A stretch of 64,000 nucleotides of DNA from Stichopus chloronotus. Its lineage: Eukaryota > Echinodermata > Holothuroidea > Aspidochirotida > Stichopodidae. The stretch is from assembly GCA_021234535.1 (NCBI GenBank), contig CM037839.1, positions 11,471,419-11,535,418 on the forward strand. Reading direction: 5' to 3'. The notes under the pieces were generated by a model that saw only the letters and a list, made by a program, of their open reading frames with translations, was not told the DNA's origin and searched no databases. The position numbers were made by a program, and so were the translations under genes. Below, piece by piece: positions 13,312 to 63,373 of this stretch. Numbering within the stretch: position 1 is the stretch's first letter; the number at the start of each line of letters is the position of its first letter.

Positions 13312-13637
13312 CTATTTCAGCTGAATGGCAGAGCAAACAAGGTTCACATCTTCACTATGGCTACAGTCGTGCGTACTGGCACGACTGCAATCTGCCAGTT
13401 TATCCTCTCGACCTGTGCAGGAGATGTCATCGATGTGGATGGGAAGAGTGTCATCGCCTGGCAGTGTACCAGAAGTGAAAGATACCATGCCATCGTAACC
13501 AAGCTGCTTGCAGGCTGTGTTCCCATCTCCCTCATTGAAACCATCATCACAGACACTTCCCCACTGTCCATTTAGGAAGACCTCCAGTCTTCCCTGGTTT
13601 GGGCTGTCACCACCCATGAGTCGCAAGTCTCCTATCT
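13312..13637 (-). CDS. Terminal SRCR exon with stop (minus-strand SRCR/hevein-like gene, exon 20)
   Basis: The acceptor gtcatttcag|AG lies at 13638-13639 and the start is phase 1. 107 residues run from IGDLRLMGGDS through GQWGSVCDDGFN, ACKQLGYDG, IDDISCTG, LADCSRASTHDC and VNLVC, followed by SAIQLK and TAG. All six SRCR cysteines are present. It is the inverted paralogue of 2025-2350. It differs from every internal SRCR exon of this gene in its loop (TSGTLPGDDTLP) and its VNLVC ending, and it lacks the N-x-T sequon that the internal SRCR exons carry near residue 11. There is no hydrophobic tail, so this isoform would be secreted unless anchored elsewhere. Confidence 0.93.
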
Positions 13638-14915
13638 CTGAAATGACATTTTTGATGGGACAGATCTGTCTAAAATGTCCACACAGAAATCCAGATTGCA
13701 GATGTAAGTTTGTAAATTAAGAAGCAAAATAGAGGCTTAGCAAAAGACATACTGGCACTGTACAACACTTCACATCACACAGTCATTTCAGCAGCTCATT
13801 TGCTATTTCATTATTTCTGCATTGTAAGAATGAATGCCAAAACACTGGGGACACAAAACTAGAATATTAACAATGCACATGACTAGGTGTGACTTCCTTC
13901 ACGGATAATAACGTGCTGTCATGTTCCAAATTGTCTGAATGGTACCTTTTGCCACCTACATCCAAAATACCGCAAATGTCGCTGAAATTTGCTTTCAAGC
14001 CACAAATTTAAAAACAAGAGGGCAATCCACGGAGTTGCGTATCTCATCGCCAACATGCATTGATTTAAATACGCCATGCACATAGGGATTTGTAAATAGT
14101 TTACTGCAACCATATCTCACAGAGACCTAGTTCGGGGAACTGGTATAAAATGGTGGTGAGCATCCCTCTACCAGTAGTGCGCACAAGTCTCCTATTTAGC
14201 TGTGCAGGACCTGGTTCTGCTAAAATTATTGTTTGACGTAAAAAGGTGGTGAATATTGACCCAGATATACCAAATGCTCAAATGCATCTCAAAATATGCT
14301 GGAAATACCAATTTTGGGACAAAATTGGCTTTTTTTCCTCCAAAATCAGTCCTAACAAAAAGTTAATTGGTGTAACAGTTCTCAAGATATGTTGGAAATA
14401 GACTTTTTTTCTATAAAATCAGCAAATTTGACTCAATGCATCTCTTGCATGTATTGGCATCATGCTCATATGCTTTTCAAACTATTCTGGAAAAACCACA
14501 ATTTGCACAGGTCCGGACGCACACACACACACGCACACATATTGGCACGGACACATTTTCATTTATACCACCCAACAGGACCTTCCCGTACCCATGGTCA
14601 CTCTACCATGGGGTACCCCTGGGGTGTCACTACTCATCCACTCCAAGCGTTTCCATGGCAACCATTCTCCCATGGGCACACAGTACAATATATAGCTCCA
14701 CCAGCCAAGTGACCACAATATCTCATCTAGCCCCTATAGGGCGAGGAGATAACAAATGACCACAAGAATATAAAGAACTACTGAGAGCAACTGCTGCACT
14801 GCATACGTGCACACATCATTGACATGTCATGTAGGTGAATAAATGCAGATAAAGAATTGTACATTCACTGATATTCTTAAAATGTTGATCTGTTGTTAAT
14901 AGATAGAATACAAAC
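13638..14915 (-). other. Intron 19, with a duplicated repeat block
   Basis: No exon. The 14285-14700 part contains degenerate copies of CAAGATATGCTGGAAATACC...TTTTGGGACAAAATTGG and a block (GGCACGGACACATTTTCATT to CAATATATAGCT) repeated at about 16315-16480 in the next intron. Confidence 0.65.
14285..14700. repeat. Intronic repeat block, copy 1 of 2
   Basis: The core CACGGACACATTTTCATTTA through CCATGGTCACTCTACCATGG and CATCCACTCCAAGC to TATATAGCT is repeated at 16090-16480 with few changes. Both are preceded by a CA-rich tract and by AAGATATGCTGGAAATACCA. The CCATGG pairs make small internal dyads. Confidence 0.8.
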
Positions 14916-15230
14916 CTCCCAATGGATTACACACAACACCAGCATCTTCATTGTGGTTGCAATTGTGAGACCTTGAGTGGGTGCAGCTCAGCAAGTCTTG
15001 ACTATCGGAAGAGCAGGCAACATCATCCAAGAGTATCTCCCCAGATCCAGCGCCAAAAGCTGCGCTGCTGAGTGCAGAAATGGCCCCAGGGAATCCCAAC
15101 TGACGACACACAACGCTGGCATCCTCGATGCCCCACAAGTCGTCACATACCGTGCCCCACTGTCTATCCAGATAAATCTCGACTCGTCCAGCTGTCTCGT
15201 TACCACCGGCTAAACGGATGGATCCCTCCT
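14916..15230 (-). CDS. SRCR exon 19 of the minus-strand gene
   Basis: Acceptor cttcttcag|AG and donor GGGAG|gtttgt, both phase 1; 315 bases. The reading is [62 protein letters not shown] and DAGVVC: six SRCR cysteines with one NET sequon near the N-terminus. It is the shortest SRCR exon here and its donor (gtttgt) is weaker than the gtaa/gtag donors elsewhere, so it could be skipped. Skipping would keep frame. Confidence 0.92.
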
Positions 15231-16089
15231 CTGAAGAAGAGACACAAATCATATTGGTTCAAACAACAACAAGAGGGCAATCCACAGAGTTGCACATCCC
15301 ATCGCCAACATGCATTGATTTCAATACAGGGCCTGCACATGGGGATTTGTAATAGTTTATTGCAACCACATGTCACAGAGTCTCAAAAATATCTGTGCAT
15401 ATTATGCTACATAACGCAATCGTAAAACTGGGTTATTCCATATAGGTTAGGCTTAATAGTCTCCTATTTAACTGTGCATGGTTCTGCTACAATTATTGAA
15501 TTAAAAATAACGTTCTCATAATTTGCAGGAATGTTCACAGACAGTTGTTTTGACTAAAGTTAAAAGGTGGTGTCTATTGACCCGGATGTCGGCCCTTTTT
15601 ATTTTTTACCAAACAATCATACAATTTCACCAGTTTACTATAAGAGTGATATACTGTATCTTCGTTACTGTGTTCACAGGAGCAGCCTTCGCAAAATTTT
15701 GCATGTAATAGCTCTCAAGATATGCTGGAAATCTTGAGACAAAATTAGCTTTTTCAAATATCAGCACTGAGATTTCACTAGATTTACCATTAATTATGTT
15801 GAACAATGTGTTCTCAGGCAAGTCCTCAAGGTATGCTGGAAATGCAAATTCTGGGGCAAAACTGGATTTTTTTTTCTCAAATCAGCAACTTTCCCTGGAT
15901 TTACCATTACAGTAATATTATGTTAAACAATGTGTTTTCAGGTAAGTCCTTACAAAACTTTAAGGTAATTGGTTTAATAGTTCTCAAGATATGCTGGAAG
16001 TACAAATTTTGGGGTAAAATTGGTTTTTTCTCAAAAATCAGTAAAATTTCACTCCCTTTAATACAAAAGTGATATGCCTTGAATATTAT

Positions 16090-16480
16090 ATTCTCAAGTA
16101 AGTCCTTGCAAAATTTCGCAGTATATGCTCAACACATCTCAAGATATGCTGGAAATACCAATTTTGGGACAAAAGTGACTTTTTTCTCAAACATCCACCA
16201 TACAACTAATACATCTTGGGCATATTGGCATCATGCACAACCTTACCAAACTTAATCACTCGTATACTTTTCAAACTTTTCCACAGGTCCAGACGCATAC
16301 ACACACCCACGCACCCACATGTATTGGCACGGACACGTTTTCATTTATACCTCCCAACAGGACCCTCCTGTACCCATGGTCACTCTACCATGGGGTACCC
16401 CTGGGGTGTCGTTACTCATCCACTCCAAGCATTTCCATGGCAACCATTCTCCCATGGGTGCACAGAACAATATATAGCTT
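16090..16480. repeat. Intronic repeat block, copy 2 of 2
   Basis: Second copy of the 14285-14700 block, with the same order: AAGATATGCTGGAAATACCA, CA-rich tract, GGCACGGACACGTTTTCATT, paired CCATGG sites, TATATAGCT. Confidence 0.8.
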
Positions 16481-17099
16481 GAAGGAGAGGATTCTCAAAG
16501 TTGACATTCCCAAAATCCTTTGTACAAACTTACCAGTTATACTGTACAATTTTAGCAAATTCTACACAAATTTTTTGCTTACCCCTCAAAAATATGGACA
16601 AAGGAATTGCACTGAGCTGCACTGAGCTCATAGCACAGCAAACTCCTGAAAATTGATTGCATTACCCAAAGGCACTTTACTTGCAGAATTTCAATGGAAT
16701 CTGATATCGACCATGCTTGTAATTCCCTTTGCTATCCTTGGTATAAAACTAGTTACAAAATAAATGAAGTCAAGGGTGAGGATGTATGCGGACCAATTGC
16801 AACTATCATCCAAGCTTCCTGTTTTGAGATTCCAAGTGCACATGTATGATTTTTCATAAATTGACCCTTGTTGACCAAATAAGACACATAATTTTGCAAC
16901 ATTTTTTCGCACACAGTGTTGACCCAAAAGGACAAAATCCACCAAATTTCAACAGATCTCTTGCACGCAATGTGGTACACCTACCCACTTTAATTACTAG
17001 ATCCGTCTGAGCTTCCTCTCTTGAGAGACAGTGCTGAAAACATTTTGAACCCAACTGAACTTAATTAAGGCTTGATTCACAGAAAATAAAAGGTTCTTG

Positions 17100-18557: not shown

Positions 18558-18878
18558 CTTCAAAGGGATCAACAGAGCAGACAACACCAGCATCTTCACT
18601 ATGTCCACAGTTATGGTTGGATGTATAGCCACAGTTCAACAGGCTGGACTCTTTTCCAGTGCATGCTAAGTCATCCATCTTTATATCTCCAGTACCAGCA
18701 CCAAAGTAGGCATTACCTGGGACAGCCGATGCCCCATGGAAGCCCAGCTGACGACAGACGACATCACCATCTGGTATGCCCCAGGAGTCATCGCAGACGG
18801 TTCCCCAGTCTCCGTTCAAGAAAATCTCCACTCGGCCAGCAGTCGAGTTACCTCCTGCTAATCGAACGGAACCTTCCT
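18558..18878 (-). CDS. SRCR exon 18 of the minus-strand gene
   Basis: Acceptor catttgcag|AG and donor GAAG|gtatgt, phase 1 at both ends; 321 bases. Residues: [65 protein letters not shown] and DAGVVC: the six SRCR cysteines and an NST sequon. The GAGTGDIKMDD region resembles exon 19 (GAGSGEILLDD) and the plus-strand exon at 1-241 more than the array SRCRs, so these form a separate 3' sub-group of the family. Confidence 0.93.
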
Positions 18879-19872: not shown

Positions 19873-20046
19873 CTGTTTCAGTGTAATCAATACATTCTTC
19901 ACAATCGCAATGGTCCGGGGTGATTCCACACCAGTTGTAAGGGGAACAACATGGGTAGATACCCTCAGGGTCACATTCTGCTACCTGTCCGTTTGGTGCC
20001 AGCCAGGGACCTCCACAACGATAGTCTTCTCTGAACCTTAATAAAG
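19873..20046 (-). CDS. Hevein-like 8-cysteine domain exon 17 of the minus-strand gene
   Basis: Acceptor gcaaccag|CT and donor AACAG|gtaagt, phase 1 at both ends; 174 bases. The reading is LLRFREDYRCGGPW, LAPNGQVAECDPEG, IYPCCSPYNWCG, ITPDHCDCEECIDYTETG. Eight cysteines are present. The CC-x5-C-x6-C core and the S-x-Y-x-W residues around it match the hevein fold and its sugar-binding aromatics. It is the most diverged of the seven copies (GGPW, NGQVAEC, EEC, TETG, and LLRF in place of LPY at the start) and stands outside the tandem array. A carbohydrate-binding role is inferred from the motif only. Confidence 0.87.
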
Positions 20047-23168: not shown

Positions 23169-23495
23169 CTGGATCAGGATTAGCTACACAAACTACTCCA
23201 GCATCTTCACCATGGCTACAATCTGAGGTATCAGGATCATAGTAACAGTCAGTAAGTGTGATTTCATCTCCATCACATGCAACATTATCCAGGTGAATGC
23301 TGCCCTCTCCTTGACCAAATGTTGCATATTTTGGAGCAGAAATAGCTCCAGAGAAGCCAAGTTGACGACAGACAACCCCAGCATCAGTAATATCCCACTC
23401 ATCATCACAGACAGTTCCCCATTCACCATTGAGCTTCACCTCAACACGACCAGCTGTCTCATTACCTCCTGCTAGACGAACGGAACCTTGTTGAT
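23169..23495 (-). CDS. SRCR exon 16, type B of tandem unit 1
   Basis: Acceptor cttttcatag|AT and donor TCCAG|gtagtg, phase 1 at both ends; 327 bases. Residues: [77 protein letters not shown] and DAGVVCVANPDPG. Six cysteines and an NET sequon. Unlike the other B exons it has KLNGEW in place of YLNGEW, a CSHGED motif in place of CNHSED (so one sequon fewer) and a VANPDPG tail. Confidence 0.93.
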
Positions 23496-25385: not shown

Positions 25386-25508
25386 CTAACTACTGAAATT
25401 TTGTCAGATTTGTATCTTACCCAGCTATTCACCAACTCCCATTCAGTTCTTCATACATACCCTTTGCCAAAATGTATTTCAATAATATAACAAGAGTCCA
25501 ACATCACT

Positions 25509-26627: not shown

Positions 26628-26798
26628 CAGATTCCCTGTAATCAATGCAATCTGCACAGTCACAGTGGTCTGCAGTGATTCCACACCAGTTGTAAGGGGA
26701 GCAACACGGGTAAATACCCTCAGGGTCACACTGAGCTACCTCTCCATTTGGTGCCAGCCAGTCACCACCACAACGGTAGTCTTCTCTGTAAGGAAGAG
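26628..26798 (-). CDS. Hevein-like exon 15, type H1 of tandem unit 1
   Basis: Acceptor ggcagcag|CT (a tandem CAGCAG site) and donor ATCTG|gtaaga, phase 1; 171 bases. Reads LPYREDYRCGGDW, LAPNGEVAQCDPEG, IYPCCSPYNWCG, ITADHCDCADCIDYRES. Eight cysteines. H1 differs from H2 by GGDW for GEGW, TADHC for TPDHC and CADC for CEDC. Use of the upstream CAG would add one glutamine. Part of the repeated H2-A-H1-B unit; lies between SRCR exons A (27687) and B (23169). Confidence 0.9.
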
Positions 26799-27686: not shown

Positions 27687-28007
27687 CTGAACCAGAAACA
27701 CAAACAACTCCAGCATCTTCTCCATGAGAACAATCTGAGGTACCAGAGTCATAGGAGCAATCTACAAGTCTAGACTCTGTCCCGGTGCATGCAACATCAT
27801 CCATGAGAATGCTGCCCTCTCCTTGACCGAATGCTGCGTATTGTGGAGCAGAAAGAGCTGCAGTAAAGCCAAGTTGTTGACAGACAACTCCAGCATCAGT
27901 TAGATCCCAATAATCATCACAGACAGTTCCCCATTCTCTGTTGATGTACACCTCCACACGACCTGCTGTGTCATTACCCCCTGCTAGACGAATGGAACCT
28001 TCCTGAA
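27687..28007 (-). CDS. SRCR exon 14, type A of tandem unit 1
   Basis: Acceptor cttttacag|TT and donor GTTCAG|gtaata, phase 1; 321 bases, 106 full codons. Cysteines fall at exon residues 29, 42, 73, 83, 92 and 102. The sequence has [75 protein letters not shown] and [11 protein letters not shown]. An NDT sequon is at residue 11. This copy has CSHGED, where the other array A exons have CFHGED, and CTGTES, shared with unit 4 only. Confidence 0.94.
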
Positions 28008-31000
28008 CTGTAAAAGAATGAGGTTAACATGCAAAACAACCCTGAAGATGAGAGAATTATACAACAGATTTGCAAAAGACAGGAATTACCTTGCAAGCCA
28101 CAGGAATGAGGATTACATTTTCAACAAGTTTTCTGTAACATCTTCTGTAGTACTTTAGTCGTAAATTTCTCTCTTACAGTCCATCAAGTCATATGAATAC
28201 ATCCTGTAGAGAATGTACTTTTGGAAAAGTTTAGAAAAGTAAAAGGTACTTTTCATTCCCCTAAATAACAGAGGTTGTCTGGATTTAAGGTACATGATCC
28301 ATAGGCTAACTGCTTTGACAGCATTCTGACACGTTTTCAGTCAAAAAAAAAATACAAATTTTCAGTAAAAAAAAAACGAGTCTCTGGTCCAACAAGTATT
28401 TAGACAGAATATAAAACACACGTTTTCAGTCCAAAAAACAACTTTGAACTCTGAAAATAAGATACACATTTTCAGTCCAAAATGCTCTCAGTCTGAACAT
28501 AAGGTACACATTTTCAGTCTGCAAAAACTAGTTTTCAGTCCGAAAATGAAATACATATTTTCAGTAAAAAAAAAAACATGTTTTTAGTCCAACAAGTTTT
28601 CAGACGGAATATAAAATAGATTTTTCTGTACAAAAAAACAAGTTTGAACTCTGAAAATAATATACAAGTTGTCAGTCCGAGACGTTGTCAATCTGAACAT
28701 AAGATACACATATTCAGTCAGCAAAATCAAGTAAAAAAACACCCTTTAATCCCACTGCTATTTTGATTTTCATTGCCTAAGGTGCTTGTCAACATTATGG
28801 TCGCAATTTGAGGGAAATTTAATATACCATCCATCATCACATTTCTTTCTACTGCTACACGGCCAAAAACAACCATTTTGTCAAAGATCTCGATATTCGA
28901 AATAACTTATTTTGATGAATTCTGCTTCTAGAAAAATTCAAATTTGTGGTAGTTAGAGAGAAATGGAGTTGCTTTGTGAAACTGCTTAATTTTCAGAAGC
29001 CCAGCATCAAATTTCCTTAACATGCTATTGACAAATGGTCCAAAAAAGAAGCTTCCCAAGGTGTCAAAAAAATTAGTTCAACAATTCAAGTTGGTTTTTA
29101 GAATTCATAACCAGACATTTAATATTATTCATGTGCACACATCAGTCAGTACAAGAAAGGGCAAAAATTTTCAAATATTTTGACACTCTTCATAAACATT
29201 GGATGTGGAACTGAACTAATCATGCTAATTATGAGTATCGCTATGTGTTTATACCATTTAAAATCATCACAAGCTTATTGACATCAACTTAATGAGCCCA
29301 AAAATGTTGGGTGTATTTGTAAAGTTTTACAAAATTGATAAAAAAAAATCACTGATGGCAAAGTCATAGGTCAGCAACCTGCAAGTATATTCATTTAATG
29401 ATTTAACACGTGTGTTTCACATCAAACTGAAAATGTATATTTTATTTTTGGACTGAAAACATGTCAAATTGAAAAATTTTCAGACTCAAAGCGTGTATGT
29501 CACTTTTGGACTTAAAACTTTTTTGTGACATTCTTTGTGTAAACATGCTCTAGAAGGGCACTATGGTTAATTGCTTCAAGATATACTTCAACTGTAGGAA
29601 TTTATCACATCAACAAAAATTTGGGCCCTTTTTGCACCTACAAATGCTGAGCAGCCAAAGGGACTCAACTGCCATAGTACTAATATTTTGTAAAACCTCA
29701 ACATTGTAAGATGTCATTTGTAGAAACACTATTGATTTGCACGATGTAATCATTCATGGCCCACACGGTCTGTTCTGAAGAACAGACCCAGGAATGCTGA
29801 ACACTGCAAAAGGCTCCACAACCACAATGCTAATTTGACCTTTCAGATTGTACAGCAAAATATATGAAAAAGAAAACATTTTACAAGATTTGATAATGCA
29901 GTCCATATGGCCCATAAGGGACCACTAATCCTGAGATCTTGAACAATCTGAAGGAACCACTAACATAGTAGTAATTCATGTGACACAATTTCAACTTAAT
30001 ACCATACAATCTGTAGGAGAAGAGGCATTTCGCATGATTTCATAAGATGGCCCATATAGCCCATTTGGAACTCGGACCGCAAAATCTTGAACACTCTGAA
30101 GGTACCACTAACATAATGCATCCATATACCAAATATACATTTTGTCCAAGCTTTATAACTTGTGATATCGTGGTTTAAAGTTTTACAGAGTTTTGCCCTT
30201 AGTGCCCCTAAATGACCTTTGACCTCAACCAAAAAGTAGAGCACACCTTCTCAATGTGGTTGACCTACATACCAAATTTTGACTTTCATCTGACTTTCCC
30301 CTATTGAGTTTAGAGCATACTCAAGCTAGTGTCACAAAAACATAAACACACATATACAAACACCTGCACACACGCACACACACAACTTTTTTTCCAATTC
30401 ATTCCGAGGACCTCATTGTGCTTTCTTTTTTTTTTTATTCCTCAACCCTAACCTTAACAATAGACTGTCTATTGTTAATCTCGAGAAGACCGGAGAAACC
30501 TATTGCATTTTCTACAGAGGAGCTAAAATCTATTGTTTCCATCCTCAATCCCACCCGAAAACAAGGGCACATACACACACCAGTTTGACACCATAGGATA
30601 CTTTGCTGACTATGCAAGGAACTAAATAGGTTCTCTGTGCTATCCTTTGTGGCATTTGAAGACCCTTCACTCTTCAACACAATTTGTCCTGAATTCAGTA
30701 TCATCCTCTTTGACCGCAAGCTATCACCCTTCATTCCAAGAATCAGTGTCTCTAAGTTCAAGTGTGGATGGAAGCATTCACTGACATCAGACGCAGAAAT
30801 ATTCAAGGAACTCCTATCTTGAATTGGAATGTATCAGCTATGTGCTACTTAAATTGTCTGCCTACATTCTTAACTTTGCTTGAGGCTTGATAAAATTGTG
30901 AGTGTTTCCTTTCTTGTAATCCCTTATATACTTTTACAATTTACCCACTGTTCACCTCCAAGAAATAATCAATGAAATTCTTCAAAAGAAATATGAAATG

Positions 31001-31154: not shown

Positions 31155-31325
31155 CAATGCTCCTGTAATCAACACAATCTTCACAGTCACAGTGGTCCGG
31201 AGTTATTCCACACCAGTTGTAAGGGGAACAACATGGATAAATACCCTCAGGATCACACTGAGCTACCTCTCCATTTGGTGCCAGCCAACCCTCTCCACAA
31301 CGATAGTCTTCTCTGTAAGGAAGAT
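31155..31325 (-). CDS. Hevein-like exon 13, type H2 of tandem unit 1
   Basis: Acceptor gagcag|AT and donor GCATTG|gtaagg, phase 1; 171 bases, 56 full codons. Cysteines at exon residues 9, 23, 31, 32, 38, 45, 47 and 50. Reads LPYREDYRCGEGW, LAPNGEVAQCDPEG, IYPCCSPYNWCG, ITPDHCDCEDCVDYRSIG. Ser33, Tyr35 and Trp37 sit where hevein has its Ser19, Trp21 and Trp23; the position of hevein Tyr30 is His44. Placed between SRCR exons B of unit 2 (33636) and A of unit 1 (27687). Confidence 0.9.
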
Positions 31326-33635: not shown

Positions 33636-33959
33636 CTGAATCAGGTGATTTGCAAACAACTCCAGCATCTTCGCTATGGTTACAATCTGATGCATCAGGA
33701 TCATAGTAGCAGTCAGTAAGTGTGATTTCATCTCCATCACATGCAACATTATCCAGGTGAATGCTGCCCTCTCCTTGACCAAATGTTGCATAGAGAAGAG
33801 CAGAAATAGCTCCAGTGAAGCCAAGTTGTTGACAAACAACCCCAGCATCAGCTAGATCCCACTCATCATCACAGACAGTTCCCCATTCACCACTGAGGTA
33901 CACCTCGACACGACCAGCTGTCTCATTACCTCCTGCTAGACGAATGGAACCTTGTTGAT
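33636..33959 (-). CDS. SRCR exon 12, type B of tandem unit 2
   Basis: Acceptor ctttcacag|AT and donor GATTCAG|gtagaa, phase 1; 324 bases. Residues include [79 protein letters not shown] and VVCKSPDSG. Six cysteines; NET and NHS sequons. It has [10 protein letters not shown] like the A exons, where other B exons have VVCRQLGFS. One codon is missing from the KSPSDSG tail seen in units 3-5. Confidence 0.93.
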
Positions 33960-36967: not shown

Positions 36968-37138
36968 CAGAATCCCTGTAATCAATGCAATCTGCACAGT
37001 CGCAGTGGTCTGCAGTGATCCCACACCAGTTGTAAGGGGAACAGCACGGGTAGATACCCTCAGGATCACACTCAGCTACCTCTCCATTCGGTGCCAGCCA
37101 GTCACCTCCACAACGATAGTCTTCTCTGTAAGGAAGAG
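36968..37138 (-). CDS. Hevein-like exon 11, type H1 of tandem unit 2
   Basis: Tandem acceptor ggcagcag|CT, donor TTCTG|gtaaga, phase 1; 171 bases. Reads LPYREDYRCGGDW, LAPNGEVAECDPEG, IYPCCSPYNWCG, ITADHCDCADCIDYRDS. Eight cysteines, and the S-x-Y-x-W sugar-site pattern is kept. It differs from the unit 1 H1 at two residues (VAEC for VAQC, RDS for RES). Confidence 0.9.
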
Positions 37139-38016: not shown

Positions 38017-38337
38017 CTGAACCAGAAACACAAACAACTCCAGCATCTTCTCCATGAAAACAATCTGAGGTACCAGAGTCATAGGAGCAATCTACAAGTC
38101 TAGACTCTGTCCCGGCGCATGCTACATCATCCATGAGAATGCTGCCCTCTCCTTGACCGAATGCTGCGTATTGTGGAGCAGAAAGAGCTGCAGTAAAGCC
38201 AAGTTGTTGACAGACAACTCCAGCATCAGTTAGATCCCAATAATCATCACAGACAGTTCCCCATTCTCTGTTGATGTACACCTCCACACGACCTGCTGTG
38301 TCATTACCCCCTGCTAGACGAATGGAACCTTCCTGAA
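38017..38337 (-). CDS. SRCR exon 10, type A of tandem unit 2
   Basis: Same acceptor, donor and 321-base length as exon 14. Protein nearly identical to it: VACAG for VACTG and SDCFHGED for SDCSHGED, ending VSGSG. All six cysteines and the NDT sequon are kept. The near-identity of A exons compared with diverged introns suggests recent duplication, gene conversion or selection. Confidence 0.94.
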
Positions 38338-41255: not shown

Positions 41256-41426
41256 CAATACTCCTGTAATCAATGCAATCTTCACAGTCACAGTGGTCCG
41301 GAGTTATTCCACACCAGTTGTAAGGGGAACAACAAGGGTAGATACCCTCAGGATCACACTGAGCTACCTCTCCATTTGGTGCCAGCCAACCCTCTCCACA
41401 ACGATAGTCTTCTCTGTAAGGAAGAT
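41256..41426 (-). CDS. Hevein-like exon 9, type H2 of tandem unit 2
   Basis: Acceptor gagcag|AT, donor GTATTG|gtaagg, phase 1; 171 bases. Reads as the unit 1 H2 with CIDYRSIG in place of CVDYRSIG. All eight cysteines are present. Lies between SRCR B of unit 3 (43780) and SRCR A of unit 2 (38017). Confidence 0.9.
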
Positions 41427-43779: not shown

Positions 43780-44106
43780 CTGAATCAGAAGGTGATTTGC
43801 AAACAACTCCAGCATCTTCGCTATGGTTACAATCTGATGCATGAGAATCATGATAGCAATCAGTCAGTCTTGTTTCATCTCCATCACATGCAACATTATC
43901 CAGGTGAATGCTGCCCTCTCCTTGACCAAAGGTTGCATAGAGAAGAGCAGAAATAGCTCTAGAGAAGCCAAGTTGACGACAGACAACCGCAGCATCAGTA
44001 AAATCCCAGTCATCATCACAGACAGTTCCCCATTCACCATTGAGATAAACCTCAACACGACCAGCTGTCTCATTACCTCCTGCTAGACGAATGGAACCTT
44101 GTTGAT
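43780..44106 (-). CDS. SRCR exon 8, type B of tandem unit 3
   Basis: Acceptor cttttcatag|AT, donor GATTCAG|gtagaa, phase 1; 327 bases. [83 protein letters not shown]. Six cysteines, NET and NHS sequons. It differs from the unit 4 B exon at GFSR/GFSG, DSHAS/DSDAS and ETAG/ETTG. The truncated H1 exon lies only 87 bases upstream. Confidence 0.93.
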
Positions 44107-44193
44107 CTATGAAAAGAATAAAGAATATGTTTCTCGTTACATTACTTCCCAAATGCTCCCAATGGTGACATGTTTCTTCTGACACCTTTAAAA

Positions 44194-44243
44194 TGGTGCC
44201 AGCCAGTCACCACCACAACGGTAGTCTTCTCTGTAAGGAAGAG
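44194..44243 (-). pseudogene. Truncated hevein-like exon (H1 of unit 3)
   Basis: The acceptor (ggcagcag|CT) and the first 50 bases of an H1 exon are intact, coding LPYREDYRCGGDWLAP. The sequence then jumps at a TGGTGCC shared by the exon and by the intron near the B exon. Right after the junction the frame meets TTT TAA. The rest of the domain (7 of 8 cysteines), its donor and nearly 3 kb of intron are gone. Inclusion would end the protein early. Confidence 0.88.
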
Positions 44244-45128
44244 CTGCTGCCAGGAATTAAAACAAAGACAACAAAAGAGAAATTGTGTGATTTACTCCAA
44301 ACCAGCAACTGAAAATTCTGGTCATTGCATCGAAGTAAGCACAGTCTTTCTAGCTTTTGTTTGTAATATACGAGTTCATTGCAGAGAGTTATTTGTGATG
44401 GCTTTGCAGAGGGGCAGAGGTTCCCACAAATTTACCTGAAATAGTAAACATTTGTTGTACGTATGATACAATCCATTAATTCGATCCCAGACTCATTAAT
44501 TAAAGTTTTTGTTCTGAAAGAAAACATGTGGAAAGGAAATTAAATCAACACCAACGCTATTACATATCTTTATGAGTCATGGCTACAAAGTTTGTTAACC
44601 TTCAAGAGGAGTAATGAGCCAGTAGCAAAAAACAGATGGGAGAAGATTTCTTTCGTAATGCGGTTCATCTTTGATGATGGTGCTTAGAGTTAAGGTGACC
44701 AGAGAAGCAATGGACGTAAAATGCAGATAAGAGACAGACAAGTACAGATTGTCTTAATTTCCAAGATGCTTATATTCATTTTTGTTTTGTATCTAGTACA
44801 TGGAATACTATCTAAAAACATGAATTAAGGATTCTTCCTTCAGAGATCATGATATGGTGGAAATGCAGCTATCATGATTCAAAGCATTACACAAGATATT
44901 GAAATTATACAAGAAGTAAAAAATATAATTCAAATATAGAAGACACTTAAAACTTATTTAGACCCCATAGACACTTAATTAACCAGATTCTAAAGGTATC
45001 ATATAAAGTAAAGGAAGCACTCAGTGTGCCAACCTGGTATGATATTACCAGAAAGAGGAGATACCCAAACAATTCTAATGAAACAATGATGCAATAAACA
45101 GAACTGCTGTAATATGGAATAATATTAC

Positions 45129-45449
45129 CTGAATCAGAAACACAAACAACTCCAGCATCTTCTCCATGAAAACAATCTGAGGTACCAGAGTCATAGGAGC
45201 AATCTACAAGTCTAGACTCTGTCCCGGCGCATGCAACATCATCCATGAGAATGCTGCCCTCTCCTTGACCGAATGCTGCGTATTGTGGAGCAGAAAGAGC
45301 TGCAGTAAAGCCAAGTTGTTGACAGACAACTCCAGCATCAGTTAGATCCCAATAATCATCACAGACAGTTCCCCATTCTCTGTTGATGTACACCTCCACA
45401 CGACCTGCTGTGTCATTACCCCCTGCTAGACGAATGGAACCTTCCTGAA
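45129..45449 (-). CDS. SRCR exon 7, type A of tandem unit 3
   Basis: Acceptor cttttacag|TT, donor GATTCAG|gtaata, phase 1; 321 bases. Same protein as the unit 2 A exon (VACAG, CFHGED) except for the tail VSDSG in place of VSGSG. Six cysteines and the NDT sequon are present. With H1 lost it joins directly to SRCR B (exon 8). Confidence 0.94.
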
Positions 45450-48220: not shown

Positions 48221-48391
48221 CAATACTCCTGTAATCAACACAATCTTCACAGTCACAGTGCTCCGGTGTTATTCCACACCAGTTGTAAGGGGAACAACAA
48301 GGGTAGATACCCTCAGGATCACACTGAGCTACCTCTCCATTTGGTGCCAGCCAACCCTCTCCACAACGATAGTCTTCTCTGTAAGGAAGAT
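48221..48391 (-). CDS. Hevein-like exon 6, type H2 of tandem unit 3
   Basis: Acceptor gagcag|AT, donor GTATTG|gtaagg, phase 1; 171 bases. As the other H2 exons but with TPEHC for TPDHC and CVDYRSIG. Eight cysteines. Upstream of it in the transcript is SRCR B of unit 4 (exon 5), downstream SRCR A (exon 7). Confidence 0.9.
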
Positions 48392-50658
48392 CTGCTCCTC
48401 GATTGAAACAAAACAAGTATATGATACAGATAAAATATTATGAATGAACCTGATGCGCACACATCGTGAATAAACCTGATCCACTTTTCTATCTGGATAC
48501 AGAGAGTCTTCCCAGTTTTTTTCTTAAAATATGTCTTCAACTAAGGTCTATTTTATTACTTGGCCTTCTATTTTTTCAATATTTTGAAAGGATTTGTATT
48601 TATTCTTCCAAAGCAGAGTCCCAGTTCAAGATCACTATTAAAGATTTTATGTGCAGGGTCTTACACTGAGTCAAATCAATCCAAAAAAAAAAAAAGAGCC
48701 TGATACACAATAGCCAAATAAACTAATACAAGATATTGATCAAACAGTTCAAAACACACATTAATTTTACATTTAATCTTTGGCTGAGCTATCTTGATTT
48801 CTGAAATGATTAGTCATCACGCTATTTGAATGCAGTACAAACAAGTGATGTAAAAGAAAAAACCTGTTAGCTAACAGGATCATGATTTGATTCTCCCTTT
48901 AGCTGAGACTGAAGGAGTTGAAGGAACTGCCTGTAACTCATCTCTTATGTCACCAGACAATCTCAGCCCTGCTCTGTGTGCGCTGTACACAGCAGAAGGC
49001 ACTCATAAGGATTACCTACTGCTGGGAACGATGGAGGCAGGGAGCAAGAGCCCAGAGAGAAACCACAGAATGTTTAAGTCACTGACCATCACTACCTACA
49101 CTTCTACGACTTGTGCAGGGCCAAATCAGAGAAGAGGGCTTTATGGGCAGTTTCACAGCATGTTAACTAAAACATAGCTTCATTTGAAGAGATGGAATTG
49201 TACTTGCGTGAATGACTATCACTGGCAAATCAAAATCTCTTTTCAAACAACCCAATAAGAAATATTTTCAGAAAAGCAATAGATCTTCAACAGGAAGGTT
49301 TTTCTTGAATTATCTTGTATCAGCCTGGCTAGGAAAGAGACTTCTCTTACAAGAATTTGAAATGAAATATTGGAGATATGAAGGCTCCTTTGGTGGTTCT
49401 TTGTTGGAGAAACAAGAGTCCATGAGCACTATGGTTCCTAGCACAAAGATTACTACAGGTATAACATGATCTATGACATCTCAAAAAAGTTTGGACCCCA
49501 TTTTGTCCCTTAGAATGCTGATCAGCCGAAGATACTTAACTACCAAAGTACTAATATGAAAAAGCCTTAACATTATAAGTAATAATTTGTTGCATTGCAC
49601 AGTGTAATTTATGGCTCACATGGCCCATTCTAAAGTCTAGTTAGAATCACAAATGTTGAACAATGCAATAGGTTAAACCACCGCAATGCTTATTTGACAA
49701 TCCTTCCACATTGTAAAGGAAAATCTGCAAAAAGAGAAACATTTTGCATGATTTTGTAAAATGGCCTACTTGGACAATGGACCCCAAAATCTTGACACAC
49801 CCCAAAGGCACAACTACCATAATAGTAACGTGAAACTACCTTATCTGTAATAGTACTGTACAATCAGTATTCATTTGTATTCAAATTGGGTCCTTTATGC
49901 ATGTAATTTTCCAGCTAAATAACACCAAATTTGGGGAGCCTTTATGGCTATTGTCTGAGACCCTGAACAGGAAAACTTGCTGTTGAAACCCACTTTACCT
50001 ATAAGTGAGCCCTAATGGACATTTCTCAGTTACAGTTATTCATGTGTCTCTTGAGCTGAATAAATGCATTTTTTACCCCCCTTTTTGACCCCCTATACCA
50101 AAAGTACAGGTTGTGCCCTAGTGGCTCTTCTTGACTCCTGGGTCCAAACCTACATGATGGGACCATTAAGGCTATTGTATCTTTTTAGCTGAATAAATGC
50201 TCTGGGCTCCATGACTAATTTATTTTCTAGCTTATGATTTTGGAGTCTTATGCCACAGTGACAGCCAATGCAAGAACTGACTAAAAACATTTGCTGAATG
50301 ACAAATTTCAGGAAATGTCTGCCTTGATCTTTAACCTGATCTGTGTACTCTGTTTTTTTTTTCCAAAGGTTTACAAAACAGTCAAATTTGGGCAATGTCA
50401 GAGATGTGAACAAAAGTAGAGCTGTGGGTGAAAGCATCACAAAAAGATGAACTATTAGCTTTAGACATGACACCAGCATTTATTCAAAGTTTGTTGGGTT
50501 TGTGAAAGGGTGGCTGTAATGGCTCGATGAAATACTCAGAGATATTATAAAATTATTGATAGAGTATGATAAAATATAAATAGAAGGCACTGAACATCAC
50601 TTTCCACTTAAATGGATTGAATAAAACAACATATTACATCAGGAAAGTAGAATTCTAC
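48392..50658 (-). other. Intron 5 (B of unit 4 to H2 of unit 3)
   Basis: Includes the DYLLLG conserved block (48887-49177). Near 48870 the sequence (CTAACAGGATCATGATT) matches unit 1 rather than unit 2, and past 49300 it becomes almost identical to 42420 onward. Confidence 0.65.
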
Positions 50659-50985
50659 CTGAATCAGAAGGTGATTTGCAAACAACTCCAGCATCTTCGC
50701 TATGGTTACAATCTGATGCATCAGAATCATGATAGCAATCAGTCAGTCTGGTTTCATCTCCATCACATGCAACATTATCCAGGTGAATGCTGCCCTCTCC
50801 TTGACCAAAGGTTGCATAGAGAAGAGCAGAAATAGCTCCAGAGAAGCCAAGTTGACGACAGACAACCGCAGCATCAGTAAAATCCCAGTCATCATCACAG
50901 ACAGTTCCCCATTCACCATTGAGATAAACCTCAACACGACCAGTTGTCTCATTACCTCCTGCTAGACGAATGGAACCTTGTTGAT
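50659..50985 (-). CDS. SRCR exon 5, type B of tandem unit 4
   Basis: Acceptor cttttcatag|AT, donor GATTCAG|gtagaa, phase 1; 327 bases. [83 protein letters not shown]. Six cysteines, NET and NHS sequons. The ETTG (for ETAG) is private to this copy. Confidence 0.93.
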
Positions 50986-51071
50986 CTATGAAAAGAATAA
51001 AGAATATCTTCTAATAACATTACTTCCCAAATGCTCCCAATGGTGACATGTTTCTTCTGACACCTTTAAAA

Positions 51072-51121
51072 TGGTGCCAGCCAGTCACCACCACAACGGT
51101 AGTCTTCTCTGTAAGGAAGAG
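51072..51121 (-). pseudogene. Truncated hevein-like exon (H1 of unit 4)
   Basis: Same 50-base remnant, same TGGTGCC junction and same stop just after it as at 44194-44243. The deletion therefore predates the duplication of this segment. It sits 86 bases upstream of the B exon. Confidence 0.88.
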
Positions 51122-52006
51122 CTGCTGCCAGGAATTAAAACAAAGACAACAAAAGAGAAATTGTGTGATTTACTCCAAACCAGCAACTGAAAATTCTGGT
51201 CATTGCATCGAAGTAAGCACAGTCTTTCTAGCTTTTGTTTGTAATATACGAGTTCATTGCAGAGAGTTATTTGTGATGGCTTTGCAGAGGGGCAGAGGTA
51301 CCCACAAATTTACCTGAAATAGTAAACATTTGTTGTACGTATGATACAATCCATTAATTCGATCCCAGACTCATTAATTAAAGTTTTTGTTCTGAAAGAA
51401 AACTTGTGGAAAGGAAATAAAATCAACACCAACGCTATTACATATCTTTATGAGTCATGGCTACAAAGTTTGTTAACCTTCAAGAGGAGTAATGAGCCAG
51501 TAGCAAAAAACAGATGGGAGAAGTTTTCTTTCGTAATGCGGTTCATCTTTGATGATGGTGCTTAGAGTTAAGGTGACCAGAGAAGCAATGGACGTAAAAT
51601 GCAGATAAGAGACAGACATGTACAGATTGTCTTAATTTCCAAGATGCTTATATTCATTTTTGTTTTGTATCTAGTACATGGAATACTATCTAAAAACATG
51701 AATTAAGGATTCTTCCTTCAGAGATCATGATATGGTGGAAATGCAGCTATCATGATTCAAAGCATTACACAAGATATTGAAATTATACAAGAAGTAAAAA
51801 ATATAATTCAAATATAGAAGACACTTAAAACTTATTTAGACCCCACAGACACTTAATTAACCAGATTCTAAAGGTATCATATAAAGTAAAGGAGGCCCTC
51901 AGTGTGCCAACCTGGTATGACATTACCAGAAAGAGGAGATACCCAAACAATTCTAATGAAACAATGATGCAATAAACAGAACTGCTGTAATATGGAATAA
52001 TATTAC

Positions 52007-52327
52007 CTGAACCAGAAACACAAACAACTCCAGCATCTTCTCCATGAAAACAATCTGAGGTACCAGAGTCATAGGAGCAATCTACAAGTCTAGACTCTGT
52101 CCCGGTGCATGCTACATCATCCATGAGAATGCTACCTTCTCCTTGACCGAATGCTGCGTATTGTGGAGCAGAAAGAGCTGCAGTAAAGCCAAGTTGTTGA
52201 CAGACAACTCCAGCATCAGTTAGATCCCAATAATCATCACAGACAGTTCCCCATTCTCTGTTGATGTACACCTCCACACGACCTGCTGTGTCATTACCCC
52301 CTGCTAGACGAATGGAACCTTCCTGAA
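52007..52327 (-). CDS. SRCR exon 4, type A of tandem unit 4
   Basis: Acceptor cttttacag|TT, donor GTTCAG|gtaata, phase 1; 321 bases. Protein as the other array A exons, with VACTG (as unit 1) and CFHGED (as units 2 and 3), ending VSGSG. Six cysteines and the NDT sequon are kept. The mix of unit 1 and unit 2/3 variants is what exchange between copies would leave. Confidence 0.94.
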
Positions 52328-52655
52328 CTGTAAAAGAATGAGGTTAACATGCAAAACAACCCTGAAGATGAGAGAATTATACAACAAATTTGCAAAAGAC
52401 AGGAATTACCTTGCAAGCCACAGGAATGAGGATTACATTTTCAACAAGTTTTCTGAAACATCTTCTGCAGTACTTTAAGGCCTTTAATCGTAAATTTCTC
52501 TGTGACAGTACATCAAGTCATATGAATACATCCTGTAGAGAATGTTCTTTTGGAAAAGTTTAGAAAAGTAAAAGGTACTTTTCATTCCCCTACATAACAG
52601 AGGTTGTCTGGATTTTAGGTATATGATCCATAGACTAAATGCTTTGACAGCATTG

Positions 52656-53520
52656 CGACACGTTTTCAGTCAAAAAATAAAATACAAATTTTCAGTAAGA
52701 AAAAAAAAAAAAAACACATCTTTGGTCCAACAAATTTTCAGACAGAATATAAAATAGTCCAAATACAGTTTTCAGTCCAAAAAAACAAGTTTTACGTCTG
52801 ACAATAAGATACAAGTTTTCAGTCTGAAGCTCTTTCAATCTGAACATAAGAAACACATGTTCAGTCCATAAAACAAGTTTTCAGTCTGAAAATAAAATAC
52901 ACATTTTCAGTCAAAAAAAAAAACAAACAAGTACTAAGTCCAACAAGTTTTCAGACAGAATGTAAAATACACATTTTCAGTACAAAAAACAAGTTTTAAA
53001 GCAGAAAATACGATGCAAGTTATCAGTCCTAACCTTTTCTAGTCTGAACATATGATACACATTATCAGTTTGCGAAAACAAGTTTTCTGCACGAAAATAA
53101 CATGAAGTAAAAAGCACAATTAAATCCCACTGCCATTTTGATTTTCATCGCATGAGGTGCTTCATCATATTCCTTTCTTCTGCTACATGGACAAAAACAA
53201 CCATTTTGTCAAAGATCTCCATATTCAAAATCATTGAGAGCAAAGTCAAAGATCATCAACCTGCAAGTATATTCATTTCCTGACAAAAATGTGTATTTCA
53301 CATTCAGACTGAAAATGTACATTTCAGTTTTGGACTGAAAACATGTCAGATTGAAAAATTCTCAGACTGAAAGCATGTATGTCATTTTCGGACTGAAAAA
53401 TTGTTTCTTTTTTTTGACTGACAATGTCTATTGTTTTCAGGCTGAAAACGTGTATTTTATTTTTGGACTGCAATCTTGTCAGGCTGAAAACTAGTCAGAT
53501 TGAAAACATGTCAGATGTAG
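52656..53520. mobile_element. Foldback-like element, unit 4, with long arms and short centre
   Basis: Left arm of TTTTCAGTC subrepeats at 52656-53100. Right arm of GACTGAAAA subrepeats at about 53290-53520, longer here than in the other units. Only about 190 bases between them. This copy shows the inverted-arm structure most clearly. Confidence 0.65.
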
Positions 53521-54639: not shown

Positions 54640-54645
54640 GAGGCT
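54640..54645. other. Deletion junction removing the H2 exon from unit 4
   Basis: TTGATAAAATTGTGAG (as near 47950-47966) runs straight into GCTCACATGGCCCATTC (as near 49613-49630). In unit 3 about 1.65 kb, including the H2 exon at 48221-48391, lies between these points. Confidence 0.8.
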
Positions 54646-55664: not shown

Positions 55665-55991
55665 CTGAATCAGAAGGTGATTTGCAAACAACTCCAGCAT
55701 CTTCACTATGGTTACAATCTGATGCATCAGAATCATGATAGCAATCAGTCAGTCTGGTTTCATCTCCATCACATGCAACATTATCCAGGTGAATGCTGCC
55801 CTCTCCTTGACCAAATGTTGCATAGAGAGGAGCAGAAACAGCTCCAGAGAAGCCAAGTTGACGACAGGCAACCCCAGCATCAGTAATATCCCAATCATCA
55901 TCACAGACAGTTCCCCATTCACCATTGAGATACACCTCAACACGACCAGCTGTCTCATTACCTCCTGCTAGACGAATGGAAACTTGTTGAT
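55665..55991 (-). CDS. SRCR exon 3, type B of unit 5
   Basis: Acceptor cttttcacag|AT, donor GATTCAG|gtagtg, phase 1; 327 bases. [36 protein letters not shown], then [10 protein letters not shown] where other copies have [31 protein letters not shown] and [10 protein letters not shown]. Six cysteines. QQVSIRL replaces the QQGSIRL shared by most copies. It joins in frame to exon 4 now that H2 is gone from unit 4. Confidence 0.93.
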
Positions 55992-61900: not shown

Positions 61901-61923
61901 AATTTAATATGGTATATCATTAC
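55992..61923 (-). other. Intron 2, with about 4.8 kb not related to the array
   Basis: 55992-57100 continues the array-type H1-B intron, but no H1 exon or remnant follows. From about 57120 to 61800 the sequence has no match in the other units. It has AT-rich composition, poly-A and poly-T runs and a CCCCCCCC run near 61677. Short open frames (58714-58971, 60341-60613 minus, 60988-61188 minus) show no domain I recognise. Confidence 0.6.
57169..57917 (+). other. Possible 3'-terminal exon of an unrelated plus-strand transcript
   Basis: A cttgtgttgcag acceptor is followed by 34 open codons (phase 1; DSVCDLWDTFSPQKP start), a TAG at 57273-57275, and an AATAAA at 57912-57917 about 640 bases on. 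I recognise no family and find no upstream plus-strand exon. This is weak. Confidence 0.2.
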
Positions 61924-62244
61924 CTGAACTGGAAACACAAACTACTCCAGCATCATCTCCATGAGAACAAGATGAGGTAGTAGAGTCATAGTAGCAATCT
62001 ATAAGTCTAGGCTCTGACCCGGTGCATGATACATAGTCCATAAGAATGCTGCCTACTCCTTGACCAAAAGTTGCATGTTTTGGAGCAGAAAGAGCTCCAC
62101 TGAAGCCAAGTTGCTGGCAAACAACCCTGGCATTAGGTAGATCCCATAAATCATCACAAACAGTCCCCCATTCTCCATTCAGATACACCTCAACACGACC
62201 AGCTGTGTCATTACCTCCTGCTAGACGAATGGAACCTTCTTCCT
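61924..62244 (-). CDS. SRCR exon 2, A-like, unit 5
   Basis: Acceptor gttttcacag|AG, donor GTTCAG|gtaatg, phase 1; 321 bases. [90 protein letters not shown]. Six cysteines and an NDT sequon. It mixes B-like (YLNGEWG, LGFSG) and A-like (GSILMD, GTES/GSEP) features and is the most diverged array SRCR, probably the oldest copy or one that escaped homogenisation. Confidence 0.93.
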
Positions 62245-63196
62245 CTGTGAAAACAATGAGGGAAGCAAACAAAACAATAGTAAAGAAGAGAGCTTTTCCA
62301 TTTAAAACAACAGATTTGAAAGAAACAGACATTACCTTGCGTGTCACAGCAGTCACGACTAAATTTTCAACAAGAATTTCAATAACAACTTTTGTGGTAC
62401 TTGCAGACTATGTGACAGTACATCTAAACACAAGTCCTGTGAATCCTCCCAGTATGTGTATCAGAGAATGAACTTTTGCAACAGTTTAGAAAAAAGAAAC
62501 TAAGGTACATTTTCCCCATCCTAAGTAACAGATGTTGTTTGGATGTTAGAAAATGATCCATAGACTATTGTTTTCACAGCTTATCTTAGATGACAAATTT
62601 CTTTTTTCTTCACAGAGAAATTCTTCACATAAAAAAGTTATCTGTGCAATCTTTTGTGGTACTTGAATTTTGAAGTATTTTCAAACTTTACAATTTATCC
62701 TGAATTCAATATCCTATTTGACGACAAGCTGTCACACTTCATCTAAGAATCAGTGTCTCCAAGTTCAAATGTGGATGGATGCATTTAATGACATCAAACA
62801 TAGAAACATCCAACAAACTCATATCTCAGATTGAAATGTATCAGCTATATGATAATTAAATTGACCATCAACATTCTGAAACATACTTGAAGTTTGATCA
62901 CATTGTAACAGTTTGACTTCTTGTGATTCCTATTGTTTACAATTTAACATGTAATTTACCATCAAGTAATAATGGATTTCCTGTAACACAGGAATATCAT
63001 GTTCAAATGACATATGTGGTATCTCTCTGTGTTACCACGAATGAGCAAACGAAAACTATCATCTTTTCTGTACACAATGCAATGGAAGTATAGATACCTG
63101 GGACGTTTCCATGTTTACACTGGCAAAGGACATGTACACCAAAAACACTATATCTCACCCTGAGATTATTCATCAATTAGGTGTTATGATCCTTAC
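62245..63196 (-). other. Intron 1 (H2 to A-like, unit 5)
   Basis: About 0.95 kb without a foldback block, unlike the array units. Parts near 62640-63000 match sequence flanking the H2 exons at 30650-30970. No exon. Confidence 0.6.
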
Positions 63197-63373
63197 CAAT
63201 ACTCCTGTAGTCAATGCAATCTTCACAGTCACAGTGGTCCGGAGTAATTCCACACCAGTTGTAAGGGGAACAACAAGGGTAGATACCCTCGGGATCGCAC
63301 TGAGCAACCTCTCCATTCGGTGCCAACCAGCCTTCTCCACAACGATAGTCTTCTCTGTAAGGAAGACCTTCAG
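63197..63373 (-). CDS. Hevein-like exon 1 (most 5' exon visible), H2 type, unit 5
   Basis: Acceptor aactcccag|CT, donor GTATTG|gtaagg, phase 1; 177 bases. It has two extra codons (EG) before LPYREDYRCGEGW, then LAPNGEVAQCDPEG, IYPCCSPYNWCG, ITPDHCDCEDCIDYRSIG. Eight cysteines. It begins in phase 1, so at least one further exon lies upstream beyond the window; no signal peptide is visible here. Confidence 0.9.

What the first reader, a model, noticed from the sequence alone, without database searches (positions are those of the whole stretch)
13312..63373. A giant SRCR/hevein-like mosaic gene built entirely from symmetric phase-1 cassette exons
Twenty intact minus-strand exons (13 SRCR, 7 hevein-like) each carry one domain and have phase-1 borders on both sides. 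Together they give an open frame of about 1,800 codons ending at 13312. Any subset of exons stays in frame, so alternative splicing or exon loss could yield many receptor variants from one locus. SRCR gene expansions are known in echinoderms and amphioxus, but I do not recall this regular interleaving with a hevein-like domain being described.
Basis: partly seen in the sequence, partly recalled or inferred. Interest (0 to 1): 0.85.

Follow-up and report, generated by a model that had tools for sequence, protein, structure and literature searches.

The report
Giant SRCR–chitin-binding mosaic immune-type gene
This stretch of an animal chromosome, probably a sea cucumber's, holds part of a very long row of interchangeable exons for two kinds of microbe-binding domain; the parts are familiar and similar predicted proteins exist in sea cucumber databases, but I found no paper describing the mixed gene, and it would make a good test of whether one gene yields many receptor variants.

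Summary
Confirmed: 20 minus-strand exons (13 SRCR, 7 hevein-like), the 19 internal ones all 1-1 phase, join into 1,801 codons ending at 13312. Best-scoring splice sites favour phase 1 (acceptors 16 of 20, donors 19 of 19; domain-free control ORFs show no bias). The window shows only the 3' third: the run continues on the same strand to window coordinate 198,764, 66 full domain exons (53 SRCR, 13 hevein-like) over 185 kb. Whether that is one gene is unproven. Symmetric 1-1 exons are the textbook rule for mobile domains. The hevein-like domain is closest to the chitin-binding domain of amphioxus BbtPGRP3. SRCR plus this domain already exists in predicted proteins of the sea cucumbers Apostichopus japonicus and Holothuria leucospilota; two A. 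japonicus models differ by one clean 457-residue block of whole domains, as the cassette idea predicts. The array grew by tandem duplication, exon decay and probably gene conversion. Best reading: a secreted, DMBT1-like, multivalent microbe-binding protein. Exon gain and loss are visible; alternative splicing is plausible but untested here. Eight literature searches found no description of the mosaic.

The parts
63197..63373 (-). hevein-like (H) exon, 177 nt, 1-1 phase
61924..62244 (-). SRCR exon, type A, 321 nt, 1-1
55665..55991 (-). SRCR exon, type B, 327 nt, 1-1
52007..52327 (-). SRCR exon, type A, 1-1
51072..51116 (-). decayed H exon: 15 homologous codons and the acceptor kept, rest lost, in-frame stop follows
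50659..50985 (-). SRCR exon, type B, 1-1
48221..48391 (-). H exon, 171 nt, 1-1 (weak acceptor)
45129..45449 (-). SRCR exon, type A, 1-1
44194..44238 (-). decayed H exon, same lesion as at 51072-51116
43780..44106 (-). SRCR exon, type B, 1-1
41256..41426 (-). H exon, 1-1 (weak acceptor)
38017..38337 (-). SRCR exon, type A, 1-1
36968..37138 (-). H exon, 1-1
33636..33959 (-). SRCR exon, type B, 324 nt, 1-1; patchwork, gene-conversion-like
31155..31325 (-). H exon, 1-1 (weak acceptor)
27687..28007 (-). SRCR exon, type A, 1-1
26628..26798 (-). H exon, 1-1
23169..23495 (-). SRCR exon, type B, 1-1
19873..20046 (-). H exon, 174 nt, 1-1 (weakest acceptor)
18558..18878 (-). SRCR exon, 1-1
14916..15230 (-). 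SRCR exon, 1-1 (weak donor GTTTGT)
13312..13637 (-). last coding exon: SRCR type C, ends in TAG a few codons after the domain

Best explanation
The window holds the 3' end of a very large secreted mosaic gene of the DMBT1-like SRCR kind, most likely from a sea cucumber. SRCR and hevein-like (animal chitin-binding) domains, one per 1-1 phase exon, are strung into a multivalent protein that binds microbial surfaces: polyanionic and bacterial ligands through SRCR, N-acetylglucosamine polymers (chitin, perhaps peptidoglycan) through the hevein-like domain. Such a protein would agglutinate or opsonise microbes in coelomic fluid or mucus. Because the cassettes are 1-1 phase, the array can gain or lose domains by unequal crossing-over and may vary them by exon skipping without breaking the frame. 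Shown: exons, phases, frame, tandem duplication, exon decay, conserved residues. Inferred: one transcript, secretion, microbe binding, splicing variation, the animal group.
For: Exons, phases and frame. The run continues to 66 full exons on the same strand, best acceptor phase 1 in 61 of 66 and best donor in 62 of 65. Pfam SRCR in 13 of 13 exons; relatives by sequence include CD163 (M130), CD5L and DMBT1 structures. All 13 window SRCRs have 6 Cys; 13 of 13 match WG[TSV][VI]C[DHN]D and 12 of 13 the distal acidic pattern near the last Cys; 13 of 13 match a relaxed and 10 of 13 the strict form GRVEVxxxxxW; GRVEVLYRGSW is the bacteria-binding 11-mer of human DMBT1 (PMC3100851, passages). H domain: best solved relative is the chitin-binding domain of amphioxus BbtPGRP3, E 1.4e-9, whose chitin-binding residues are Ser51, Trp53, Trp55, His62 (PMC4610682, passages); the 7 window H domains have Ser, Tyr, Trp, His there and 8 Cys. 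Constraint between copies: pooled pN/pS 0.19 for H, 0.38 for A, 0.57 for B exons. Similar architecture: A. japonicus P0121-P0123 and H. leucospilota P0124. Among the 129 proteins fetched, the best match of all 7 H exons and of 12 of 13 SRCR exons is a sea cucumber protein (with the names). Literature, by name only: an 'SRCR type 12 precursor' rises 22-, 39- and 6-fold at 4, 24 and 72 h in A. japonicus coelomocytes after LPS (PMC4264123, passages), and a DMBT1-named protein is in H. tubulosa coelomic fluid (PMC12119288, passages).
Against: No transcript or protein evidence for this locus. No signal-peptide exon was identified: a loose scan of the window gave 8 candidates on the minus strand (three nested at one site) and 2 on the plus strand, none convincing, and the conserved stretch upstream of the array's first SRCR exon gave none either. 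Four window H exons have weak acceptors. The H exons score 23.4-24.5 bits against Pfam PF00187's cut-off of 27.8, 7 of 7 under it, and an AlphaFold2 model of H from 6 sequences was uninformative (mean pLDDT 45). The best match of the last SRCR exon is not from a sea cucumber (44% to a fish protein). The LPS-induced sea cucumber gene is linked to these only by a name. CUB and ZP domains, typical of DMBT1, could not be searched for.
Confidence: 0.7

Rival explanations
1. The 185-kb run is two or more head-to-tail genes, each with its own first and last exon, and the window shows the end of one of them.
For: No first exon identified. Three of the last four exons of the window gene (H-SRCR-SRCR, without C) have a copy upstream at 64,941-69,635 (blocks 90.6, 83.7 and 84.0% identical), as if a second gene end had once stood there. 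Exon 127942-128244 has no good phase-1 donor and its frame runs into a hydrophobic tail and a stop; five other full exons upstream of the window have phase-1 donors scoring below 0. H exons occur only downstream of about 85 kb; the first 34 full exons are all SRCR.
Against: No C-type terminal exon between 13638 and 141 kb nor near 60-68 kb in a relaxed search; every full exon but the last has some phase-1 donor candidate. Sea cucumber proteins of up to about 5,981 aa and 51 SRCR domains are reported for H. glaberrima (PMC13228809, passages), and A. japonicus models reach 2,925 aa.
Confidence: 0.45
2. A splicing-based repertoire: one locus makes many receptor variants by choosing cassettes, in the manner of Dscam.
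For: All 190 forward joins of the window's exons keep frame. Two A. japonicus models on contigs of the same length, named isoform X3 and isoform X12 (with different name stems), differ only by a 457-residue block of whole domains, and the X3 cluster has 10 member sequences.
Against: No transcript here. That the two models are one gene is inferred from their identity. Near-identical cassettes can fool short-read assembly, so predicted isoforms may be artefacts. 1-1 phase alone is the general rule for mobile domains and does not imply regulated splicing. No test for docking or selector pairing was run.
Confidence: 0.25
3. The near-identical tandem units are an assembly artefact (unmerged haplotypes).
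For: Units at 40,672-46,327 and 47,662-53,231 have 98.4% exon and 94.5% intron identity, a level that allelic copies in a heterozygous marine animal might show.
Against: Identity along that pair is patchy, from 74 to 100% in 250-bp steps; units differ by large deletions; other unit pairs are down to 90.7 and 87.4% in introns; no N in the 304 kb read, all within one 31-Mb contig.
Confidence: 0.08
4. The product is structural or adhesive (mucus, cuticle, body wall) rather than immune.
For: SRCR and chitin-binding terms occur together in two papers on animal adhesion (search listing only: PMC6626399, PMC7333891).
Against: Retained DMBT1 bacteria-binding motif and chitin-binding residues; immune induction of a similarly named sea cucumber SRCR gene.
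Confidence: 0.15

Closest known systems
Apostichopus japonicus predicted proteins P0121 (2,925 aa, isoform X3), P0122 (2,468 aa, isoform X12) and P0123 (2,403 aa, 'putative SRCR protein type 12 isoform X1')
   Same: SRCR and the same H domain in one protein (window H exons 78-87% identical to their best P0123 copy): 12 S + 22 H, 11 S + 16 H and 18 S + 7 H.
   Different: P0121 and P0122 also have two Fz domains and long runs of H. The window's SRCRs match other sea cucumber proteins best (P0019, P0048, P0039; 63-65% for 12 exons). Order of domains differs; orthology not shown.
Holothuria leucospilota 'Neurotrypsin' P0124 (1,957 aa)
   Same: 8 SRCR + 6 H in one protein.
   Different: Also carries LDL-receptor class B repeats.
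Vertebrate DMBT1 (gp-340)
   Same: Tandem SRCR domains, one exon each, GRVEVxxxxxW motif, SRCR exon-number variation in people (PMC3100851, PMC5435793, passages).
   Different: DMBT1 SRCRs are group B, usually with 8 Cys, separated by SIDs, with CUB domains and (recalled) ZP; here 6 Cys and H domains between. CUB and ZP were not searched for over the array.
Amphioxus BbtPGRP1-3
   Same: Same type of hevein-like chitin-binding domain (PDB 4z8i).
   Different: There it is fused to a PGRP amidase domain (PMC4610682, passages), here to SRCR.
Sea urchin SRCR genes
   Same: Large expansion, tandem clusters, one exon per SRCR domain in the cluster shown (PMC10855680, passages).
   Different: The main text of that paper has no occurrence of 'chitin' or 'hevein'; my two H searches returned no sea urchin protein.

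Membership tests
SRCR superfamily | Match to Pfam SRCR (PF00530) over the cut-off | tested here: met
   13 of 13 window exons, 93-110 bits against 26.1.
SRCR group A | Six cysteines | tested here: met
   13 of 13 in the window, 53 of 53 in the array.
SRCR group A | Domain encoded by two exons (as defined in PMC3100851) | tested here: not met
   One exon per domain, 13 of 13.
SRCR group B | Usually eight cysteines | tested here: not met
   Six in all 53.
SRCR group B | Single exon per domain | tested here: met
   13 of 13.
Hevein-like domain as Pfam Chitin_bind_1 (PF00187) | Score over the Pfam cut-off | tested here: not met
   7 of 7 window H exons match at E 3e-5 to 7e-5 but 23.4-24.5 bits against 27.8; the sea cucumber relatives pass as whole proteins.
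Hevein-like chitin-binding domain, BbtPGRP3 type | Eight cysteines and the Ser/aromatic/Trp/His ligand residues | tested here: met
   7 of 7 window H domains; Tyr in place of Trp53.
Hevein-like chitin-binding domain, BbtPGRP3 type | Fold | tested here: inconclusive
   AlphaFold2 from 6 sequences, mean pLDDT 45.
Hevein-like chitin-binding domain, BbtPGRP3 type | Binds chitin | not testable with these tools
   Needs recombinant protein.
DMBT1 proper | CUB and ZP domains beside the SRCRs | not tested
   Whole-genome searches for CUB and ZP did not complete; ten other ORFs of the window had no Pfam match.
Class 1-1 mobile modules | Phase-1 introns on both sides | tested here: met
   19 of 19 internal window exons; unbiased best site phase 1 in 61 of 66 acceptors and 62 of 65 donors over the array.
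Holothurian SRCR + H mosaic proteins | Both domain types in one open frame, interleaved | tested here: met
   At gene-model level only. No transcript seen.
Dscam-like splicing repertoire | Many isoforms from regulated cassette choice | not testable with these tools
   No RNA data for this genome.

The most novel reading that the evidence does not exclude
A single invertebrate immune locus of 66 cassettes of two microbe-binding folds (53 SRCR, 13 chitin-binding), nearly all 1-1 phase and so mutually compatible, about 6,400 residues if all are used, that creates a repertoire both by splicing choice in the soma and by unequal crossing-over and conversion between near-identical cassettes in the germ line.
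Probability: 0.2. Interest if true: 0.85.

Novelty: new variant of a known kind. Interest (0 to 1): 0.5.

Why it matters
SRCR expansions in echinoderms are known, but how one array makes diversity is open. Here the array is continuous within one 31-Mb contig, its units have different degrees of divergence, and the cassettes are frame-compatible, so splicing, unequal crossing-over and gene conversion can be told apart by long-read cDNA and by comparing individuals. The mix of a bacteria-binding fold with a chitin-binding fold suggests a dual-specificity pattern-recognition protein that the searches I made did not find described.

Tried and rejected
AlphaFold2 of the H domain from six window sequences: mean pLDDT 45, so no fold search was made. 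Search for signal-peptide exons in the window: 8 minus and 2 plus strand candidates, none convincing. Head-to-head comparison with the plus-strand array at 271 kb: a 72% identical 0.3-kb stretch about 1.1 kb upstream of the first SRCR exon, without a clear signal peptide. Search for a hidden C-type last exon at 60-68 kb: none. Pfam on ten other ORFs of the window: nothing. Gene conversion: in the A+B exon alignment the pair B33959/B23495 has p = 1e-4 (x45 pairs = 0.0045), but with B exons only the same pair gives 0.037, while B50985/B33959 and B44106/B33959 give 0.0004 (10 pairs); so B33959 is probably mosaic, the donor less sure. Palindrome as misassembly: the inverted pair 2015-2350 / 13312-13647 is 85% identical and covers one exon only, so a paralogue. 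Species: not named; sea cucumber is inferred from protein similarity alone. CUB and ZP in the array: not answered; Fz likewise.
Full report
OBSERVATION. Six-frame reading and tblastn find 13 SRCR and 7 hevein-like (H) exons, all intact and all on the minus strand, between 63373 and 13312. Pfam agrees for each: SRCR at E 1.3e-26 to 5.7e-32 in 13 of 13, Chitin_bind_1 at E 3e-5 to 7e-5 in 7 of 7, the latter under the curated cut-off. With borders chosen by eye at fitting AG and GT, all 19 non-terminal exons are multiples of three with phase-1 borders on both sides, and the last one ends in TAG at 13312; the joined frame is 1,801 codons with one stop. All 190 forward joins avoid a junction stop, because the last base of all 19 exons is G. 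Scored without regard to phase, the best acceptor is phase 1 in 16 of 20 and the best donor in 19 of 19 exons; control ORFs of 100 aa or more in the same 304 kb without a domain show no bias (phases 1/0/2: 49/47/40 and 50/47/38). The site-scoring tables were written from general knowledge, not from a call.

The window is C11:11,471,419-11,535,418 of a 719-Mb assembly in 267 contigs. The minus-strand run goes on in the same orientation to window coordinate 198,764: 69 domain hits, 66 of them full (53 SRCR, 13 H) and 3 partial (models built from the window's own exons). Over the 66, the best acceptor is phase 1 in 61 and the best donor in 62 of 65 (binomial against one third, 1e-23 and 3e-26; the exons are related, so these are not independent). 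Order from the 5' end: 34 SRCR, then mixed H and SRCR to the end. The 65 exons with both sites add up to 19,092 nt, 6,364 codons. One gene is not shown: exon 127942-128244 lacks a good phase-1 donor and five more full exons have phase-1 donors scoring below 0; no first exon was found; and the final H-S-S trio has a second copy at 64.9-69.6 kb (83.7-90.6% identical), without a C-type last exon. Plus-strand SRCR arrays flank the run on both sides.

GENOME CONTEXT. The genome has at least 88 H matches at E 1e-3 or better among 93 candidates, and 727 and 704 first-look SRCR candidates in two searches, of which 150 were scored each time. Of the 88 H matches 60 lie on C11: 40 at 10.58-10.68 Mb, 13 in this locus and 7 at 11.84-12.00 Mb (my count). 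In two 10-kb samples of the first group there are 11 H and 1 SRCR exons, with a phase-1 best donor in 12 of 12 and a phase-1 best acceptor in 9 of 12. So H exons of this kind are a family, not a single freak.

HOW IT GREW. Blocks carrying A, H, B, H repeat at offsets of 7.0, 7.1, 10.1 and 10.3 kb. In the nine long block pairs measured, intron identity is 93.5-95.9% in seven and 90.7 and 87.4% in the other two; exon identity is 92.9-99.2%, and in one pair lower than in introns (93.9 against 94.7%). Two units share a deletion, seen by comparison with the intact units, that removed most of one H exon and nearly all of the intron after it, leaving an intact acceptor, 15 codons and a stop: exon loss followed by duplication. 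Exon B33959 is a patchwork. Pooled pN/pS is 0.19 for H (21 pairs), 0.38 for A (10) and 0.57 for B exons (10), so H is the most constrained.

WHAT THE PARTS ARE. SRCR: all 53 have six cysteines, the count of group A, but sit in single exons, the layout of group B as defined in PMC3100851 (passages); PMC13228809 says most if not all H. glaberrima SRCRs are group A by cysteines (passages), and PMC10855680 says sea urchin SRCRs have one exon each (passages). The DMBT1 bacteria-binding 11-mer is kept in relaxed form in 50 of 53 and strictly in 40 of 53; WG[TSV][VI]C[DHN]D in 50 of 53; the distal acidic pattern in 45 of 53. H: 23.4-24.5 bits to PF00187, under the cut-off; best solved relative 4z8i, amphioxus BbtPGRP3, whose CBD binds chitin, lost in the W53A/W55A mutant (PMC4610682, passages). 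All 13 H domains keep eight cysteines and a Ser-x-[Tyr/His]-x-Trp-Cys...His pattern; 12 have Tyr and one His at the Trp53 place. The last exon ends a few codons after its SRCR, with no anchor, so the product is probably secreted (inference; no signal peptide found).

RELATIVES. With the H domain as query, the protein collection gave 6 proteins among those of about 990-3150 aa and 3 among those of about 300-950 aa: four sea cucumber proteins with SRCR + H (P0121-P0124), one sea cucumber GPCR-named protein with H (P0128) and four Branchiostoma proteins with H but no SRCR. The search needs shared 5-residue words, so distant relatives could be missed. Of the 129 proteins fetched, these 9 have H; none of the 120 listed from the SRCR-rich query does (5,729 passed that search, only 120 were listed). 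Best matches among the 129: P0123 for 7 of 7 H exons (78-87%), A. japonicus or H. leucospilota proteins for 12 of 13 SRCR exons (63-65%), a fish protein at 44% for the last exon. P0121 (named isoform X3) and P0122 (named isoform X12, with another name stem) are identical but for one 457-residue block that begins and ends between domains. This is the only isoform evidence I have, and it is from gene models of another species.

LITERATURE. Eight searches gave no paper on SRCR joined to hevein-like domains; I read passages of nine papers, not whole texts, and the library holds open-licence papers only. PMC13228809 reports 37 SRCR loci in H. glaberrima, 1 to 51 SRCR domains, up to about 5,981 aa, with diverse other domains, and has no occurrence of 'chitin' in its main text (passages). 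PMC3927616 and PMC4284660 give class 1-1 modules as the general rule, SRCR named in the former (passages). PMC5435793 reports SRCR exon-number variation in human DMBT1 (passages).

VERDICT. Combinatorial use remains a good, untested idea.

Noticed in passing
window 51072-51116 and 44194-44238 (-): The decayed H exons keep an intact acceptor and soon run into an in-frame stop; if spliced in they would act as poison exons.
   Followed up: no
window 1-234 and 2015-2350 (+), and C11:11451419-11471418 (L018, L017): A second SRCR array on the opposite strand ends tail to tail with this one; both last exons are the same C-type SRCR (85% identical).
   Followed up: partly
C11:10.58-10.68 Mb (L033, L034): Another minus-strand group of 40 H matches; in L033 all 9 domain hits are H, recalling the H runs of A. 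japonicus P0121.
   Followed up: partly
window coordinates 198,447-198,764 (L024) and 271,714-272,031 (L031), outside the window: Head-to-head SRCR arrays whose first SRCR exons are 84% identical, about 73 kb apart.
   Followed up: partly
C16:13.347-13.369 Mb: A cluster of 10 H matches on the plus strand; none of the 150 best-scored SRCR matches lies there, so H may have other partners.
   Followed up: no
window 28333-28726 and 52769-52919: Short tandem repeats with units like TTTTCAGTC... in introns near type-A exons of two units; whether they correspond was not checked.
   Followed up: no
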